The position numbers were made by a program, and so were the translations under genes. From Bacillota bacterium (lineage in GTDB: Bacteria > Bacillota > DSM-12270 > Thermacetogeniales > Thermacetogeniaceae), in assembly GCA_029907475.1 (NCBI GenBank), contig JARYLU010000015.1:1-64000 (forward strand): a stretch of 64,000 nt of DNA, written 5' to 3'. Shown here one piece after another: positions 13,085 to 18,400 of the stretch. Position 1 is the stretch's first letter; each line of letters starts with the position of its first letter. Under the pieces are notes generated by a model that saw nothing but the letters and a program-made list of their open reading frames with translations, was not told where the DNA came from and did not search any database.

Positions 13085-13113
13085 TTGACATTTCTTGTTC
13101 CGTAATTCATAAT
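13085..13113 (+). promoter_or_regulatory. Sigma-A promoter of the ANTAR regulator
   Basis: TTGACA (13085-13090), 17-base spacer, CATAAT (13108-13113). The transcript would start near 13120 and have a leader of about 145 bases. Confidence 0.75.
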
Positions 13114-13152: not shown

Positions 13153-13231
13153 AACCCGACGGTGGGTTGATGAAGGGGCGAGGATGTCCTCAAAGGAGGC
13201 AGGTTAAGCCATCCTGAAGGAGGACTTTTTT
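13153..13231 (+). promoter_or_regulatory. Leader of the ANTAR gene: hexaloop hairpin and terminator
   Basis: AACCC (153-157), loop GACGGT and GGGTT (164-168) make a five-pair hexaloop hairpin. Its loop differs at only one base from the glnA1 leader loop AACGGT. A long hairpin closed by GTCCTC (186-191) and GAGGAC (220-225), with inner pairing AGGAGGC to GCC-A-TCCT, is followed by T6 (226-231): an intrinsic terminator 32 bases before the start codon. An alternative pairing AGGATG (181-186) to CATCCT (210-215) competes with it. I infer attenuation of the regulator gene. Unlike the glnA leaders, the hexaloop stem does not overlap the terminator stem, and loop position 1 is G, not A. Confidence 0.55.
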
Positions 13232-13263: not shown

Positions 13264-13854
13264 ATGGAACAACTACGGGTTTTAATTGCGGTTGCCAGCG
13301 CGGATTCAAGAAAGAGCTTGAAGCAGTTGTTAATGAGAGGCGGTTATCACGTTCTTGCTGAAACAGATGATGGTTTTCAGGCACTGCGGCAGGCGCGAAG
13401 TTTAGACCCGGATCTTGTTCTTGCAGATGCAGATTTGCCCGGGATAAACGGACTCGAACTCGGAAGGGTTCTCTCGGAGGACAGGATCGCTCCCATCCTT
13501 CTGATTTCCCGGGAAACATTTCCCTTCACGCAGTTCGAACGGGAAAAAGGAAGGTTCATGTTTCCGGTCGGATATGTTACAAGGCCGTTAACCGAATATA
13601 ATCTTTTTCCGGCGATTGAAAGCATCCTAAGCTTCTCCAGGCATGTTCGGGATCTCGAGTCTGAAATCAAAAGTCTCCGGGAAAAAATCGAAACCCGGAA
13701 AATTGTAGAGCGGGCAAAGGGTATTTTGATGGAGCAATTGGGGATTTCCGAGGCCGAAGCTTACAGGAAGCTTCAAAAACAGAGCATGGACAGGTGTCTC
13801 CCCATGCGGAAGGTTGCCGAAGCAATCATCCTGGCTCAGGAGTTAAAACAATAA
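13264..13854 (+). CDS. ANTAR-domain response regulator (RNA-binding antiterminator)
   Basis: The 196-residue product has a receiver domain (about 4-120), a coiled linker and a C-terminal ANTAR domain (about 135-190: ERAKGILMEQLGISEAEAY and RKVAEAIIL). ANTAR proteins bind paired hexaloop RNA hairpins and prevent transcription termination. The receiver keeps an aspartate at the phosphorylation position (VLADADLPG), but the conserved Lys is Arg (VTRPL) and the N-terminal acidic pair is degenerate, so it may be a pseudo-receiver as in AmiR or NasR. It lies directly before glnA1. Candidate RNA targets occur in the leaders of glnA1 and glnA2, so control of nitrogen assimilation is strongly suggested. 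Confidence 0.9.
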   Translation: MEQLRVLIAVASADSRKSLKQLLMRGGYHVLAETDDGFQALRQARSLDPDLVLADADLPGINGLELGRVLSEDRIAPILLISRETFPFTQFEREKGRFMFPVGYVTRPLTEYNLFPAIESILSFSRHVRDLESEIKSLREKIETRKIVERAKGILMEQLGISEAEAYRKLQKQSMDRCLPMRKVAEAIILAQELKQ

Positions 13855-13869
13855 CAAGAGACTTGTGCG

Positions 13870-13974
13870 GGTAAACACCTACCGGTACAACGGTGTACCG
13901 GGGAAGGAGTAAAGGTGCTCAACAGAAACCGTAATGGTTGGCAGGTACCCTTTTCCTTTTCCGGTTTCTTTTTT
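13870..13974 (+). promoter_or_regulatory. ANTAR-type antitermination leader of glnA1
   Basis: Two abutting hexaloop hairpins are visible. P1 is GGTA-AACACC-TACC (13870-13883). P2 is CCGGTAC-AACGGT-GTACCGG (13882-13901), or GGTAC/GTACC without the shared CC. The P2 loop has A at position 1 and G at position 4, the ANTAR consensus; P1 has A1 but A4. The P2 3' strand (ACCGGGGAAGG, 13897-13907) can instead pair with CCTTTTCCGGT (13955-13965, two G-U) ahead of a T-rich run. A second terminator option, GAAACCG (925-931) with CGGTTTC (962-968), is followed directly by T6. Binding of the ANTAR protein to P1-P2 would favour read-through into glnA1. Confidence 0.7.
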
Positions 13975-14001
13975 AAGGCACTAAAAACAGGAGGGAACAA
14001 C

Positions 14002-15333
14002 ATGCTGATCCAAACAAAAGAGGATGTACTCGGGTTGGCCGAAGAATACGGCGTAAAGTTTATCAGGCTCCAGTTCACCGATATTATCGGTGTACTTAAA
14101 AATGTCGCGATTACCGTAGAACAGTTAAAGAAGGCCCTCTATGACGGGATTATGTTTGATGGTTCCTCAATCGAAGGTTTTGTCCGGATTGAAGAATCGG
14201 ATATGTATTTGGTTCCTGACCCAACCACCTTTAGCATTTTTCCCTGGCGCGGGCGCGAGAGTACCGTCGGGAGGCTGATTTGTGATGTATATAATCCCGA
14301 CGGGACACCCTTCGCCGGTTGTCCTCGAAATGCTCTAAAACGCGTCCTGGCCGAAGCCAGGGATCTGGGCTATACCATGTATGTCGGTCCTGAGGCTGAA
14401 TTTTTCCTCTTTCAAACCGATCAAGGGGATTGCCCCACTGTTTCTACCCACGATGAAGGGGGCTATTTCGATTTAAGTCCTGTTGATCGGGGTGAAGATA
14501 CGCGGCGGGATATTGTTTTAGCATTGAAGGAGATGGGGTTTGAGGTGGAGGCATCCCACCATGAGGTCGCGCCCGGTCAGCACGAAATCGACTTTAAATA
14601 CGATGATGCCCTGGCAACCGCAGACAAAGTTGTTACTTTTCGCTATGTCGTCCGGGCGATTGCCCAGCGGCACGGTTTGCACGCTACATTTATGCCCAAA
14701 CCGGTTTTTGGAATTAACGGTTCCGGGATGCATGTCCACCAATCTCTCTTTTCAAACGGAACCAATGCTTTTTTCGACCCGGAGCAACCCCTCCAGTTAA
14801 GCAGCACGGCGCTGTACTACCTGGGGGGCCTTTTATACCACGTACGAGCCTTAACCGCAATTACAAACCCTACGGTTAATTCATATAAAAGACTTGTACC
14901 GGGCTACGAAGCTCCGGTCTATATTGCCTGGTCCCCCCGGAACCGAAGCCCACTTGTACGGATTCCGCCCCGGCGGGGAAACGGAACGAGTATGGAATTG
15001 CGCAGCCCCGATCCCTCCTGCAATCCTTACCTCGCTTTTGCAGTAATTCTTAAGGCGGGTCTTGACGGCATAAAAAAGAGAATTGCACCTCCTTCACCGG
15101 TTTACCAGAATATTTACGAAATGTCGGAGGTTGAGCGAAAGGAGTTGGGAATCGGCTGCCTGCCCGGTAGTTTAGGGGAAGCACTGGATGAACTTCGCAG
15201 CAACGAAACCATCCAGGAGGCTTTAGGGCCCCATATTTACGAGAAATTCTTGGCTTCTAAAATTCTCGAGTGGAACGAATACCGTACCCAAGTACATCCC
15301 TGGGAAAGAGAACGGTATCTCTCCAGGTATTAA
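14002..15333 (+). CDS. glnA: Glutamine synthetase type I (first copy)
   Basis: The 443-residue enzyme makes glutamine from glutamate, ammonia and ATP in the cytoplasm. GS-I motifs are clear: [15 protein letters not shown], the metal-binding glutamates, [19 protein letters not shown] and the ATP-binding [12 protein letters not shown] region. Length fits the GSI-alpha group of Firmicutes. ATG 14002 is chosen because AGGAGG is 8 bases upstream; the open frame starts at 13915, but that part is the leader with terminator. The gene sits behind the ANTAR regulator and an antitermination leader. It is closely related to the copy at 16198. Confidence 0.96.
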
Positions 15334-15385
15334 GCGTTCACCCTATCCCCAATCGGGGATGTTTAATCTCATCCTCCAATTTCAG

Positions 15386-15515: not shown

Positions 15516-15857
15516 ATGAAAAATGAAACCGTCCAGTTTGAACATTTCTACCCGGGTCCCGGCCCGAATAACCATGTCCATGATTCTAGCGGTATAACCA
15601 CTTGCGAATTTGACCACTGCCACGGGCACCCGGGGGTTTCAGAGCATCCTGTTCCCACTCCCGAAGGCTCCCATATTCATACCGTACGGGGTTCCACTAC
15701 CTTCGTACATGGCCACAAGCACTTTTACGAAGGGAAATCCAGCCGGGCAATTCCTTTACCTGCAGGGTATCATACGCATTTTCTCGACTCTTCAACCGCT
15801 GTTGAAGAGGGTCATACACACCGGATTACTGTGTTTATGGCCCCGGTTCAAAGCTAA
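15516..15857 (+). CDS. YmaF-family histidine-rich protein
   Basis: A 113-residue protein with many histidines in repeated His-X-His elements (NHVHD, HIHT, HGHKH, YHTHF, EGHTHR), the signature of the YmaF family, whose function is unknown. The arrangement could bind transition metals. GGGAGG precedes ATG 15516. It is an independent unit between the two glnA copies, with its own promoter and a terminator on the upstream side. Confidence 0.8.
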   Translation: MKNETVQFEHFYPGPGPNNHVHDSSGITTCEFDHCHGHPGVSEHPVPTPEGSHIHTVRGSTTFVHGHKHFYEGKSSRAIPLPAGYHTHFLDSSTAVEEGHTHRITVFMAPVQS

Positions 15858-15861
15858 AATA

Positions 15862-15890
15862 TTGTATTCCACTGAGCTATATGGTATAAT
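15862..15890 (+). promoter_or_regulatory. Sigma-A promoter for the glnA2 leader RNA
   Basis: TTGTAT (15862-15867), 17-base spacer, TATAAT (15885-15890). Transcription should start around 15897, exactly at the first hexaloop hairpin. Confidence 0.8.
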
Positions 15891-15896
15891 TGCGCC

Positions 15897-15972
15897 CAAA
15901 GCAGGAGAGCTTTAAAAAAGGGGCAACGGCGTCCCGAGATCTCTTGGAGGAGGGGGCGCTTTATTCTTTTTT
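15897..15972 (+). promoter_or_regulatory. ANTAR-type antitermination leader of glnA2
   Basis: P1 is AAAGC-AGGAGA-GCTTT (15898-15913), a perfect five-pair stem with a hexaloop. A linker of six A follows, then P2 GGGGC-AACGGC-GTCCC (15920-15935), five pairs with one G-U. The P2 loop has A1 and G4. The 3' part of P2 is reused in the terminator: GCGTCCC (15929-15935) pairs with GGGGCGC (15953-15959), followed by TTTATTCTTTTTT. This is the published ANTAR target layout: two hexaloop stems, the second exclusive with a terminator. When not antiterminated, a short RNA of about 75 bases would be released. The AACGG loop core is shared with the glnA1 leader. Confidence 0.75.
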
Positions 15973-16010
15973 ACCGGATTCCCCTTCCGGTAAAGGAAGG
16001 GGAATCCGGT
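15973..16010 (+). other. Perfect 16-bp hairpin between leader terminator and glnA2
   Basis: ACCGGATTCCCCTTCC (15973-15988), loop GGTAAA and the exact complement (15995-16010). It lacks a following T-run, so it is not a standard terminator. It may be an RNA processing or stability element. The rest of the 340-base gap up to 16197 holds no gene I can see. Confidence 0.6.
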
Positions 16011-16197
16011 TTCACCAACGACCTTCGCTACTTTGCCAGGCTGAATTCAGGTGAACCCAGCCCTGACGCTCCTGTCTCCTGGCACTCCCCTCTTGCCTTT
16101 ACGGAATAAAGGGCGAGCAGCCCCTTTGGATTCCGGCCCCTTGCCTGCGTATAATCATTAATACCATTTTACAGATAATGTTAAGGAGGTAAAGCGA

Positions 16198-17526
16198 GTG
16201 GGGTTAACCGGCGATGATGTCCTGCGTCTTGTTCGCGAGCTTGACATTCAATTTGTCAGGCTCCAATTTGTAGACCTGCTCGGGGTTTTAAAAAATGTCT
16301 CAATTACTGTTGATCAGTTGGAGCGGGCCCTGGCAGGACAGGTTATGTTCGACGGGTCCTCTGTAGAGGGTTTTATGAGGATTGAAGAATCCGACATGTA
16401 CCTGCGTCCAGATCCCGAGACCTTTGCTATTTTTCCCTGGCGCCCGCGCGCGGGAGGAGTTGCTCGTTTAATCTGCGATATCTACCTTCCCGATGGCTCC
16501 CCGTTTCCGGGGTGTCCCCGGCAGGTCCTTAAACGGGTTTTGGCCGGGGCGGAGGCACTGGGTTATACGGTTCAGGTGGGACCGGAGGTCGAATTCTTTT
16601 TGTTCCACTTTCAAGAAGGTGGCCAGCCGAGTCTCAACACCCACGACCAGGCCGGCTACTTTGATCTCGCCCCGGTAGACCTCGGTGAAGATGCCCGCCG
16701 TGAGATCGTCTTAACTTTAAAGGAAATGGGGTATGCAATTGAAGCCAGTCACCACGAAGTGGCACCGGGCCAGCATGAAGTTGATCTTAAATATATTCCT
16801 GCCCTTGCTGCCGCAGACCTGATTACAACCTTTCGCCTTGTTGTTCGTACTGTTGCCTACCGCCACGGTCTACATGCCACATTCATGCCCAAGCCTTTTT
16901 CCGACCAGAACGGGTCCGGAATGCATCTCAACTTTTCTTTCTTTCGGGAGGGACAGAACTGCTTTTACGACCCTGCAAGTAAGTGGGAGTTGAGCGAGTT
17001 ATGCCTCTCTTTCATTGGAGGGCTTCTGACGCACGCGCCTGATTTTACTGTCTTAACCAATCCTACGGTCAACTCCTATAAGCGTCTTGTTCCGGGGTAC
17101 GAGGCGCCGGTTTACGTTGCGTGGGCTGTGGCTAACCGGAGCCCTTTGATCAGGATTCCCGTCGCGCGGGGACTTGACACGAGGGTAGAGCTGCGCAGCC
17201 CCGATCCTGCTTGCAACCCGTACCTGGCTCTTGCAGCCGTAATTGAGGCGGGTCTTGCAGGGGTTCGCGAGAAAATTCTTCCTTCGCCCCCCGTCGAGCA
17301 AAACCTTTATCTCCTGACACCAGAGCAGCGCGCTCAAATGAGGGTTAAAAATCTACCTGCCAACCTGGGCGAAGCGCTGGCTCTTTTCAAGGGAAGTACT
17401 TTTATCCGGGAAGTCGTTGGAGATCATATTTCCCGTAAATTAGTGGAACTCAAAGAGTGGGAGTGGGAGGCCTACCAGAAAGTAGTTCACAACTGGGAAA
17501 TTAAACAGTATCTGGCACGCTTTTAG
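16198..17526 (+). CDS. glnA: Glutamine synthetase type I (second copy)
   Basis: A 442-residue GS-I enzyme with the same motifs as the copy at 14002 ([50 protein letters not shown]) and clear similarity over the full length, so the two arose by duplication. GTG 16198 has AAGGAGG about 8 bases upstream. Its leader has its own promoter and an ANTAR-type antitermination signal, so the two copies may respond to the same regulator with different strength. Division of labour between them is not evident from sequence. Confidence 0.95.
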   Translation: MGLTGDDVLRLVRELDIQFVRLQFVDLLGVLKNVSITVDQLERALAGQVMFDGSSVEGFMRIEESDMYLRPDPETFAIFPWRPRAGGVARLICDIYLPDGSPFPGCPRQVLKRVLAGAEALGYTVQVGPEVEFFLFHFQEGGQPSLNTHDQAGYFDLAPVDLGEDARREIVLTLKEMGYAIEASHHEVAPGQHEVDLKYIPALAAADLITTFRLVVRTVAYRHGLHATFMPKPFSDQNGSGMHLNFSFFREGQNCFYDPASKWELSELCLSFIGGLLTHAPDFTVLTNPTVNSYKRLVPGYEAPVYVAWAVANRSPLIRIPVARGLDTRVELRSPDPACNPYLALAAVIEAGLAGVREKILPSPPVEQNLYLLTPEQRAQMRVKNLPANLGEALALFKGSTFIREVVGDHISRKLVELKEWEWEAYQKVVHNWEIKQYLARF

Positions 17527-17593: not shown

Positions 17594-17659
17594 CCCATGT
17601 GAATCTTGGACGGGAAAATAAATCAGGTTTTGTGTTTACTTTTCGGGAGGCTTATAAAA

Positions 17660-18400
17660 TTGGTACACATTAATGCTCAAGGTATCCATTACCGGGAATT
17701 GAATGAGTTGATTAAAAGGAAAGCGGAGGAAGGAGTAAGGGAGTTTCAAATCGATAATGTTAATGGCCAGCGCTATATTGGAACGGGCCTGGCCTATTAC
17801 GATCTTAAGATCGTAATTAACGGGGTGCCGGGGAACGACCTCGCCTCGTTTTTAAACGGCCCCGAAATTGTTGTTTATGATAACGGGCAAGACGCCATTG
17901 GAAACACTATGAACGCCGGCCAGGTTACGGTACATGGTCATGCCGGAGATGTACTGGGTTACGGGATGCGGGGCGGGCGGCTTTTTATTAAGGGAAATGT
18001 TGGGTACCGGGTAGGTATTCACATGAAAGAATACAAGAGGCAAATTCCGGTTCTCATTGCAGGAGGGACCGCCGGAGACTTCCTGGGGGAATATATGGCC
18101 GGAGGTATGCTGGTTTTGCTGGGGCTTGACCGGAAGCCAGATACTCCCCTCGCAGGGGACTACCTGGGAACGGGAATGCACGGGGGAGTGATCTATTTAC
18201 GGGGAGAAGTTAATCCCGCAACATTAGGAAAAGAAGTGGCGATTTTTGATTTAGATGAAAGTGATTGGAAAGAATTAGGTCCCCACCTCCGGGATTTCTG
18301 CAACGCTTTTGAATGCGATTACGATGAGGTTTGCGCTTCAAAGTTCTGCAAGTTACTTCCTGTTTCCCACCGTCCTTATGGAAGACTTTATGCTTATTAA
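17660..18400 (+). CDS. Glutamate synthase GXGXG domain subunit (split GltB, domain 3)
   Basis: The roughly 246-residue protein consists of the right-handed beta-helix GXGXG domain found at the C-terminus of glutamate synthase large subunits and in FwdC. Repeats such as GNTMNAGQVTVHGHAGDVLGYGMRGG and AGDFLGEYMAGGMLVLLG show the pattern. In split (archaeal-type) glutamate synthases this domain is a separate polypeptide that shapes the ammonia tunnel between the amidotransferase and FMN domains. TTG 17660 has CGGGAGG 9 bases upstream; the open frame starts at 17606. It heads the operon that also encodes the other two parts (22998 and 24155). Confidence 0.88.
   Translation: MVHINAQGIHYRELNELIKRKAEEGVREFQIDNVNGQRYIGTGLAYYDLKIVINGVPGNDLASFLNGPEIVVYDNGQDAIGNTMNAGQVTVHGHAGDVLGYGMRGGRLFIKGNVGYRVGIHMKEYKRQIPVLIAGGTAGDFLGEYMAGGMLVLLGLDRKPDTPLAGDYLGTGMHGGVIYLRGEVNPATLGKEVAIFDLDESDWKELGPHLRDFCNAFECDYDEVCASKFCKLLPVSHRPYGRLYAY

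What the first reader, a model, noticed from the sequence alone, without database searches (positions are those of the whole stretch)
15862..15972. Textbook ANTAR antitermination target in the glnA2 leader with its own promoter
TTGTAT-N17-TATAAT places the start at about 15897. P1 AAAGC-AGGAGA-GCTTT, an A6 linker and P2 GGGGC-AACGGC-GTCCC are consecutive hexaloop hairpins. P2's 3' strand is shared with the terminator stem GCGTCCC/GGGGCGC plus T-run. A1 in both loops and G4 in P2 fit the known ANTAR RNA consensus. An ANTAR protein is encoded 2 kb upstream.
Basis: partly seen in the sequence, partly recalled or inferred. Interest (0 to 1): 0.75.

Follow-up and report, generated by a model that had tools for sequence, protein, structure and literature searches.

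The report
ANTAR-controlled attenuator before second glutamine synthetase
A short RNA switch just ahead of a glutamine synthetase gene most likely stops transcription unless the ANTAR protein encoded 2 kb upstream grips one of its hairpin loops; switches of this kind have been known since 2012, but here it is one of three in a probably self-regulating nitrogen locus and one of its two hairpins is off-consensus.

Summary
The sequence is as described: TTGTAT-N17-TATAAT (15862-15890), P1 15898-15913, an A6 linker, P2 15920-15935, a terminator stem 15929-15935/15953-15959, and a T-run. The core reading holds. P2 (C-AACGGC-G loop) is identical in a sister species, with the same promoter hexamers and a terminator about 40 bases before glnA2. 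Another genus keeps both P2 and terminator pairing through a G-C to A-U change, in a homologous leader before gltB3. The genome has one ANTAR protein. A covariance model trained without this genus gives its three best hits in 3.0 Mb inside 2.8 kb of this locus: this leader, the ANTAR gene's own leader, and the glnA1 leader; the finding mentions only the first. 'Textbook' does not hold: P1's loop (AGGAGA) lacks G4, is only a 3-bp hairpin in the sister species, and was not found in the other genus. The regulator's receiver lacks its acidic pair, so EutV-style phosphorylation is doubtful. In this species 226 bases, a 16-bp hairpin and a possible second promoter separate terminator and glnA2. ANTAR leaders before glutamine/glutamate synthase genes were already predicted in Desulfotomaculum. 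New member of a known kind, moderate interest. Binding and read-through are untested.

The parts
13085..13113 (+). promoter of the ANTAR gene, TTGACA-N17-CATAAT
   Evidence: 11 of 12 consensus positions; both hexamers recognisable in L032, L033-36, L039
13153..13168 (+). P1 hairpin of the ANTAR-gene leader, AACCC-GACGGT-GGGTT
   Evidence: relatives have AACGGC, AAGGGC or AAAGGC loops
13175..13190 (+). P2 hairpin of the ANTAR-gene leader, GGGGC-GAGGAT-GTCCT
   Evidence: R2 hit 19.0 bits
13186..13231 (+). terminator of the ANTAR-gene leader, GTCCTC...GAGGAC TTTTTT, sharing the 3' strand of P2
   Evidence: counterparts in L032-L039
13264..13854 (+). ANTAR regulator with degenerate receiver domain (196 aa)
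   Evidence: Pfam Response_reg + ANTAR; only ANTAR protein in the genome; acidic pair missing
13870..13883 (+). P1 of the glnA1 leader, GGTA-AACACC-TACC (loop lacks G4)
13884..13899 (+). P2 of the glnA1 leader, GGTAC-AACGGT-GTACC
   Evidence: R2 hit 18.5 bits
13897..13975 (+). terminator of the glnA1 leader, ACCGGGGAAGG...CCTTTTCCGGT + T-run, sharing the 3' strand of P2
14002..15333 (+). glnA1, glutamine synthetase
   Evidence: Pfam Gln-synt_C 2e-140
15862..15890 (+). promoter of the glnA2 leader, TTGTAT-N17-TATAAT
   Evidence: weak -35
15898..15913 (+). P1 hairpin, AAAGC-AGGAGA-GCTTT; A1 present, G4 absent; not conserved
15920..15935 (+). P2 antiterminator hairpin, GGGGC-AACGGC-GTCCC
   Evidence: R2 hit 19.5 bits, best in the genome
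15929..15972 (+). intrinsic terminator: 15929-15935 pairs with 15953-15959, then T-run
   Evidence: both pairings kept in L032-L035
15973..16010 (+). perfect 16-bp hairpin after the terminator, short UUU tail; species-specific, role unknown
   Evidence: fold -33.5 kcal/mol, z -6.8; no other copy in the genome
16126..16155 (+). possible second glnA2 promoter, TTGGAT-N18-TATAAT, downstream of the attenuator
   Evidence: read; not tested; no counterpart in G001
16198..17526 (+). glnA2, glutamine synthetase, followed by gltB3 (17606-18400)
   Evidence: Pfam Gln-synt_C 1e-128, GXGXG 4.6e-32

Best explanation
This is an ANTAR-controlled transcription attenuator of the glnA2-gltB3 operon. Transcription starts near 15897 and P1 and P2 fold as RNA emerges. 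With no active ANTAR protein, the 3' strand of P2 is taken over by the more stable terminator and RNA of about 70-76 nt is released. When the ANTAR protein (13264-13854) is active it holds the P2 hexaloop (A1, flipped-out G4), keeps the terminator from forming, and RNAP runs into glnA2. The same protein most likely also controls its own gene (leader 13153-13231) and glnA1 (13870-13975), which makes a compact, self-regulating GS/GOGAT locus. Shown here: the sequences, the two alternative pairings, their conservation, the single ANTAR gene and the concentration of sites at its locus. Inferred: binding, direction of control, nitrogen as the signal. P1 is off-consensus, so it may recruit weakly or be dispensable here. 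The degenerate receiver suggests activation by a partner protein or metabolite rather than by phosphorylation.
For: Only one ANTAR protein in the 3.0-Mb genome, 2 kb upstream. Hold-out model R2, trained on other genera only, ranks the glnA2 (19.5 bits), ANTAR-gene (19.0) and glnA1 (18.5) leaders as the three best hits of the whole genome; the two next hits inspected lie inside genes. Sister species G001 has the same promoter hexamers, identical P2 and an overlapping terminator about 40 nt before glnA2, although ymaF is absent upstream. Genus g3 has a homologous leader before gltB3 with P2 GGAGC/GTTCC and a terminator 3' strand changed to match. P2 pairs: 93.3% of cells paired, changes on both sides in 6 cells; 0 of 500 shuffles reach the paired percentage or the covariation score, and every slid register is worse. 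Loop G4 and the closing C-G pair are invariant in 16 P2s. Model R1 hits at E<=0.05 fall in 15 of 35 ANTAR-bearing and 0 of 26 ANTAR-lacking genomes.
Against: P1 lacks G4 and is not conserved, while in eutP both loops were needed (PMC3369931). Each R2 hit alone is weak (E 0.4-0.7 per genome); the strength lies in their co-location. In this species 226 nt, a very stable hairpin and a possible second promoter lie between the terminator and glnA2, so read-through may not be the only supply of glnA2 mRNA. No expression or binding data. Rfam has no matching family.
Confidence: 0.85

Rival explanations
1. The 15897-15972 RNA is a stand-alone ANTAR decoy (like EutX/Rli55) that titrates the single ANTAR protein, while glnA2 is transcribed from its own promoter at about 16126-16155.
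For: Own promoter and terminator make a discrete ~75-nt RNA; 226 nt, a second hairpin and a possible second promoter lie before glnA2. Decoy ANTAR-binding RNAs exist (EutX/Rli55 named in PMC8934654).
Against: In G001 the same leader sits about 40 nt before glnA2 without a second promoter, and in genus g3 the homologous leader precedes gltB3: the link to the downstream operon is kept while the upstream gene changes.
Confidence: 0.06
2. A sub-variant of the best explanation: only P2 works. P1 is a relic, and one ANTAR dimer on P2 suffices, so this is a single-hexaloop attenuator.
For: P2 and terminator are conserved, P1 is not; the EutV-RNA structure led its authors to redefine the minimal target as one hexaloop (PMC8934654).
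Against: P1 was required in vivo for eutP (PMC3369931); a P1 with A1 is still present here and ANTAR-gene leaders of relatives keep canonical P1 loops.
Confidence: 0.3
3. A plain terminator of ymaF (which ends at 15857 with none of its own), with hexaloops by chance.
For: ymaF ends 5 nt before the promoter; fold energy alone is not unusual.
Against: Promoter hexamers lie between ymaF and the stem; P2 loop and both pairings are conserved where ymaF is absent; three such leaders lie beside the only ANTAR gene.
Confidence: 0.04

Closest known systems
EutV-controlled dual-hexaloop leaders, Enterococcus faecalis eut operon (PMC3369931, PMC8934654)
   Same: Short leader, hexaloop hairpins with A1/G4, P2 sharing its 3' strand with an intrinsic terminator, REC+ANTAR regulator
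   Different: P1 loop here lacks G4 and is not conserved; the regulator's receiver lacks the acidic pair; the target is glnA2-gltB3, not ethanolamine genes
Predicted ANTAR regulons of Desulfotomaculum reducens and D. acetoxidans (PMC3369931, Fig. 9)
   Same: ANTAR target RNAs predicted before glutamate/glutamine synthase and other nitrogen genes in a Gram-positive anaerobe
   Different: D. acetoxidans was predicted to have at least 13 sites in six units; here the three best sites all lie in one 2.8-kb stretch, including the regulator's own leader
NasT/NasR and AmiR antitermination (PMC3795266, PMC7496416)
   Same: ANTAR output on RNA leaders of nitrogen genes; control by partner or ligand rather than phosphorylation is a precedent for a degenerate receiver
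   Different: No NasS- or AmiC-like partner identified; the neighbour is glutamine synthetase
EutX/Rli55 decoy RNAs
   Same: Small RNA with ANTAR-binding hairpins and its own terminator
   Different: No riboswitch found, and conserved linkage to glnA2/gltB3

Membership tests
ANTAR antitermination leader (single-hexaloop target, PMC8934654) | Hexaloop hairpin with A1 and G4 | tested here: met
   P2 AACGGC; G4 invariant in 16 P2s, position 1 A in 12 and G in 4
ANTAR antitermination leader (single-hexaloop target, PMC8934654) | Hairpin overlaps and excludes an intrinsic terminator | tested here: met
   15929-15935 shared; both pairings kept in relatives
ANTAR antitermination leader (single-hexaloop target, PMC8934654) | ANTAR protein encoded in the same genome | tested here: met
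   One, 2 kb upstream
ANTAR antitermination leader (single-hexaloop target, PMC8934654) | Protein binds the hairpin and prevents termination | not testable with these tools
   Needs gel shift and read-through assay
Textbook dual-hexaloop consensus (PMC3369931) | Two consecutive hexaloop hairpins with a linker of a few nt | tested here: met
   P1, 6-nt linker, P2 in the window; P1 weak in G001 and not found in g3
Textbook dual-hexaloop consensus (PMC3369931) | A1 and G4 in both loops | tested here: not met
   P1 loop AGGAGA has A at position 4
EutV-type phosphorylation-activated regulator | Receiver with acidic pair, phospho-acceptor Asp and Lys | tested here: not met
   Acidic pair replaced (RVLIAVAS), Lys is Arg; Asp kept in the window protein but Glu in L033, L035, L036, L039
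EutX/Rli55-type decoy RNA | Independent RNA not linked to the downstream gene | tested here: not met
   Linkage to glnA2 or gltB3 kept in four other genomes

The most novel reading that the evidence does not exclude
glnA-linked ANTAR proteins with degenerate receivers are not response regulators in the usual sense. They may read glutamine through contact with their neighbour, (feedback-inhibited) glutamine synthetase, as GlnR/TnrA do in Bacillus, and pass the signal to RNA leaders of glnA1, glnA2 and their own gene. That would be a GS-to-RNA nitrogen circuit.
Probability: 0.18. Interest if true: 0.68.

Novelty: new member of a known kind. Interest (0 to 1): 0.36.

Why it matters
It extends ANTAR antitermination to a compact, probably self-regulating GS/GOGAT locus with a single regulator and three leaders. 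That is a simple natural system for asking whether both hexaloops are needed (P1 is already off-consensus here) and how an ANTAR protein with a degenerate receiver senses nitrogen.

Tried and rejected
Rfam, gathering and permissive: nothing relevant at the leader. Whole-genome hits below the three leaders: those inspected lay inside or antisense to genes, so I treat them as chance. Long hairpin 15973-16010 as a repeat or mobile element: only one copy in the genome. A conserved 3'-UTR motif behind glnA1 in other genera: the g3 hits look antisense to a coding gene; only G000, G001 and G006 share it exactly. Named relatives by GlnA2 search gave only 53-64% identical glutamine synthetases and were not used. 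Model R1 contains one mistyped base (row L032_ANTAR) and was trained partly on the window; R2 was built to avoid both. Linkers in both models were trimmed by hand to six letters. The GlnA1 query was translated in a wrong frame and its rows there are not used.

Full report
OBSERVATION. The finished 76-nt RNA folds into P1 plus the terminator (-24.3 kcal/mol), while the chain ending at 15936-15942 folds into P1+P2 (-11.8), as an attenuator needs. Energies alone are ordinary (z -1.0). The specific layout (P1 loop beginning with A, P2 loop AANGGY, terminator sharing P2's 3' strand) occurs twice in the window against 0.018 per shuffled window, a pattern chosen after seeing the sequence.

SURROUNDINGS. 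The locus reads: ANTAR gene (13264-13854), glnA1 (14002-15333), ymaF (15516-15857), leader, glnA2 (16198-17526), gltB3 (17606-18400). The ANTAR protein is the only one in the genome. Scanning showed two more leaders of the same design that the finding does not mention. One is ahead of the ANTAR gene (P1 AACCC-GACGGT-GGGTT, P2 GGGGC-GAGGAT-GTCCT, terminator GTCCTC...GAGGAC T6). The other is ahead of glnA1 (P2 GGTAC-AACGGT-GTACC, long terminator). The ANTAR-gene leader recurs in other genera of the family, with canonical AACGGC/AAGGGC/AAAGGC P1 loops in several, under a conserved TTGAC-type promoter, so autoregulation is likely.

CONSERVATION OF THE GLNA2 LEADER. The sister species G001 has TTGTAT-N17-TATAAT with a different spacer sequence, the identical P2, and a terminator ending about 40 nt before glnA2. 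In genus g3 a homologous leader (GGTATAATCACGCCCAAG...) stands before gltB3. Its P2 is GGAGC-AAYGGC-GTTCC and its terminator 3' strand is altered to keep pairing with the changed shared strand. Thus three strands change together and both alternative structures survive. Over 16 P2s (15 distinct), 93.3% of pair cells are standard, six cells change on both sides, no shuffle reaches the paired percentage or the covariation score, and slid registers fail. Loop G4 and the closing C-G are invariant. P1 behaves differently: AGGAGA in the window (no G4), GCT-GAAAAC-AGC in G001, none found in g3.

WHOLE-GENOME TEST. Model R2, trained on other genera only, gives as its three best hits in 3.0 Mb the glnA2, ANTAR-gene and glnA1 leaders (19.5, 19.0, 18.5 bits). 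Each alone is weak (E 0.4-0.7), but by simple proportion the chance that the other two also fall in the same 2.8 kb is about one in a million. R1 (partly trained on these sites and holding one mistyped base) has hits at E<=0.05 in 15 of 35 ANTAR-bearing and 0 of 26 ANTAR-lacking relatives (P 4.6e-5; 8 of 27 against 0 of 26, P 0.0025, without the training genomes; some of these hits may be chance hits inside genes, and one held-out genome is a near copy of a training one).

THE REGULATOR. The ANTAR domain keeps the invariant RK...AKG and M175 (aligned with the EutV methionine described as sitting in the loop). Its receiver lacks the acidic pair and has Arg for Lys. In several close relatives the phospho-acceptor is Glu. 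In one search the ANTAR gene lies within about 400 nt of a glnA homologue in most of the 20 regions fetched. Phosphorylation as in EutV is therefore doubtful; a protein partner, possibly GS itself, is a hypothesis only.

MECHANISM. Default termination at 15960-15972; ANTAR bound to P2 allows read-through into glnA2-gltB3. Shown: sequence, alternative pairing, conservation, co-location. Inferred: binding, sign and signal. In this species a 16-bp hairpin (15973-16010) and a possible TTGGAT-N18-TATAAT promoter (16126-16155) lie between attenuator and gene and are absent in G001, so part of glnA2 expression may bypass the switch.

COMPARISON. Ramesh et al. 2012 (PMC3369931) established the mechanism and predicted such RNAs before glutamate/glutamine synthase and other nitrogen genes, Desulfotomaculum included. 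The 2022 structure paper (PMC8934654) reduced the minimal target to one hexaloop. By the latter definition the leader is a member as far as sequence can show; by the strict 2012 dual-loop consensus it is not, because P1 lacks G4. I therefore call it a new member of a known kind, not textbook.

Noticed in passing
13153-13231: The ANTAR gene has its own P1/P2/terminator leader, conserved across the family, so the regulator is probably autoregulated by antitermination; its P2 loop starts with G rather than A in this species and three relatives.
   Followed up: yes
13870-13975: glnA1 has an ANTAR-type leader too (P2 AACGGT); in G001 it is fully canonical (P1 AAAGGC, P2 AACGGT).
   Followed up: yes
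13264-13854: Receiver domain of the glnA-linked ANTAR protein lacks the acidic pair; phospho-acceptor Asp is Glu in several relatives: a pseudo-receiver lineage next to glutamine synthetase.
   Followed up: partly
15365-15381: AATCTCATCCTCCAATT in the glnA1 3' UTR just before its terminator is identical in G001 and G006; it holds CCUCC (anti-Shine-Dalgarno). Candidate glnA 3'-UTR-derived small RNA, reminiscent of E. coli GlnZ (PMC9731577).
   Followed up: partly
15973-16010: Perfect 16-bp hairpin right after the attenuator's T-run, present only once in the genome and absent in the sister species; no clear role.
   Followed up: partly
15902-15908 with 15940-15946: P1 loop strand CAGGAGA is complementary to UCUCUUG in the terminator loop; an intermediate fold (-16.9 kcal/mol) encloses P2 before the terminator completes. 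Not seen in G001, may be chance.
   Followed up: no
L036:5700-5850, L033:6540-6760: A TTGTATTCA-like element (or its reverse complement GAATACAT) stands near the promoters of ANTAR, glnA2 and gltB3 in several genomes; possibly an operator rather than only a -35 box.
   Followed up: no
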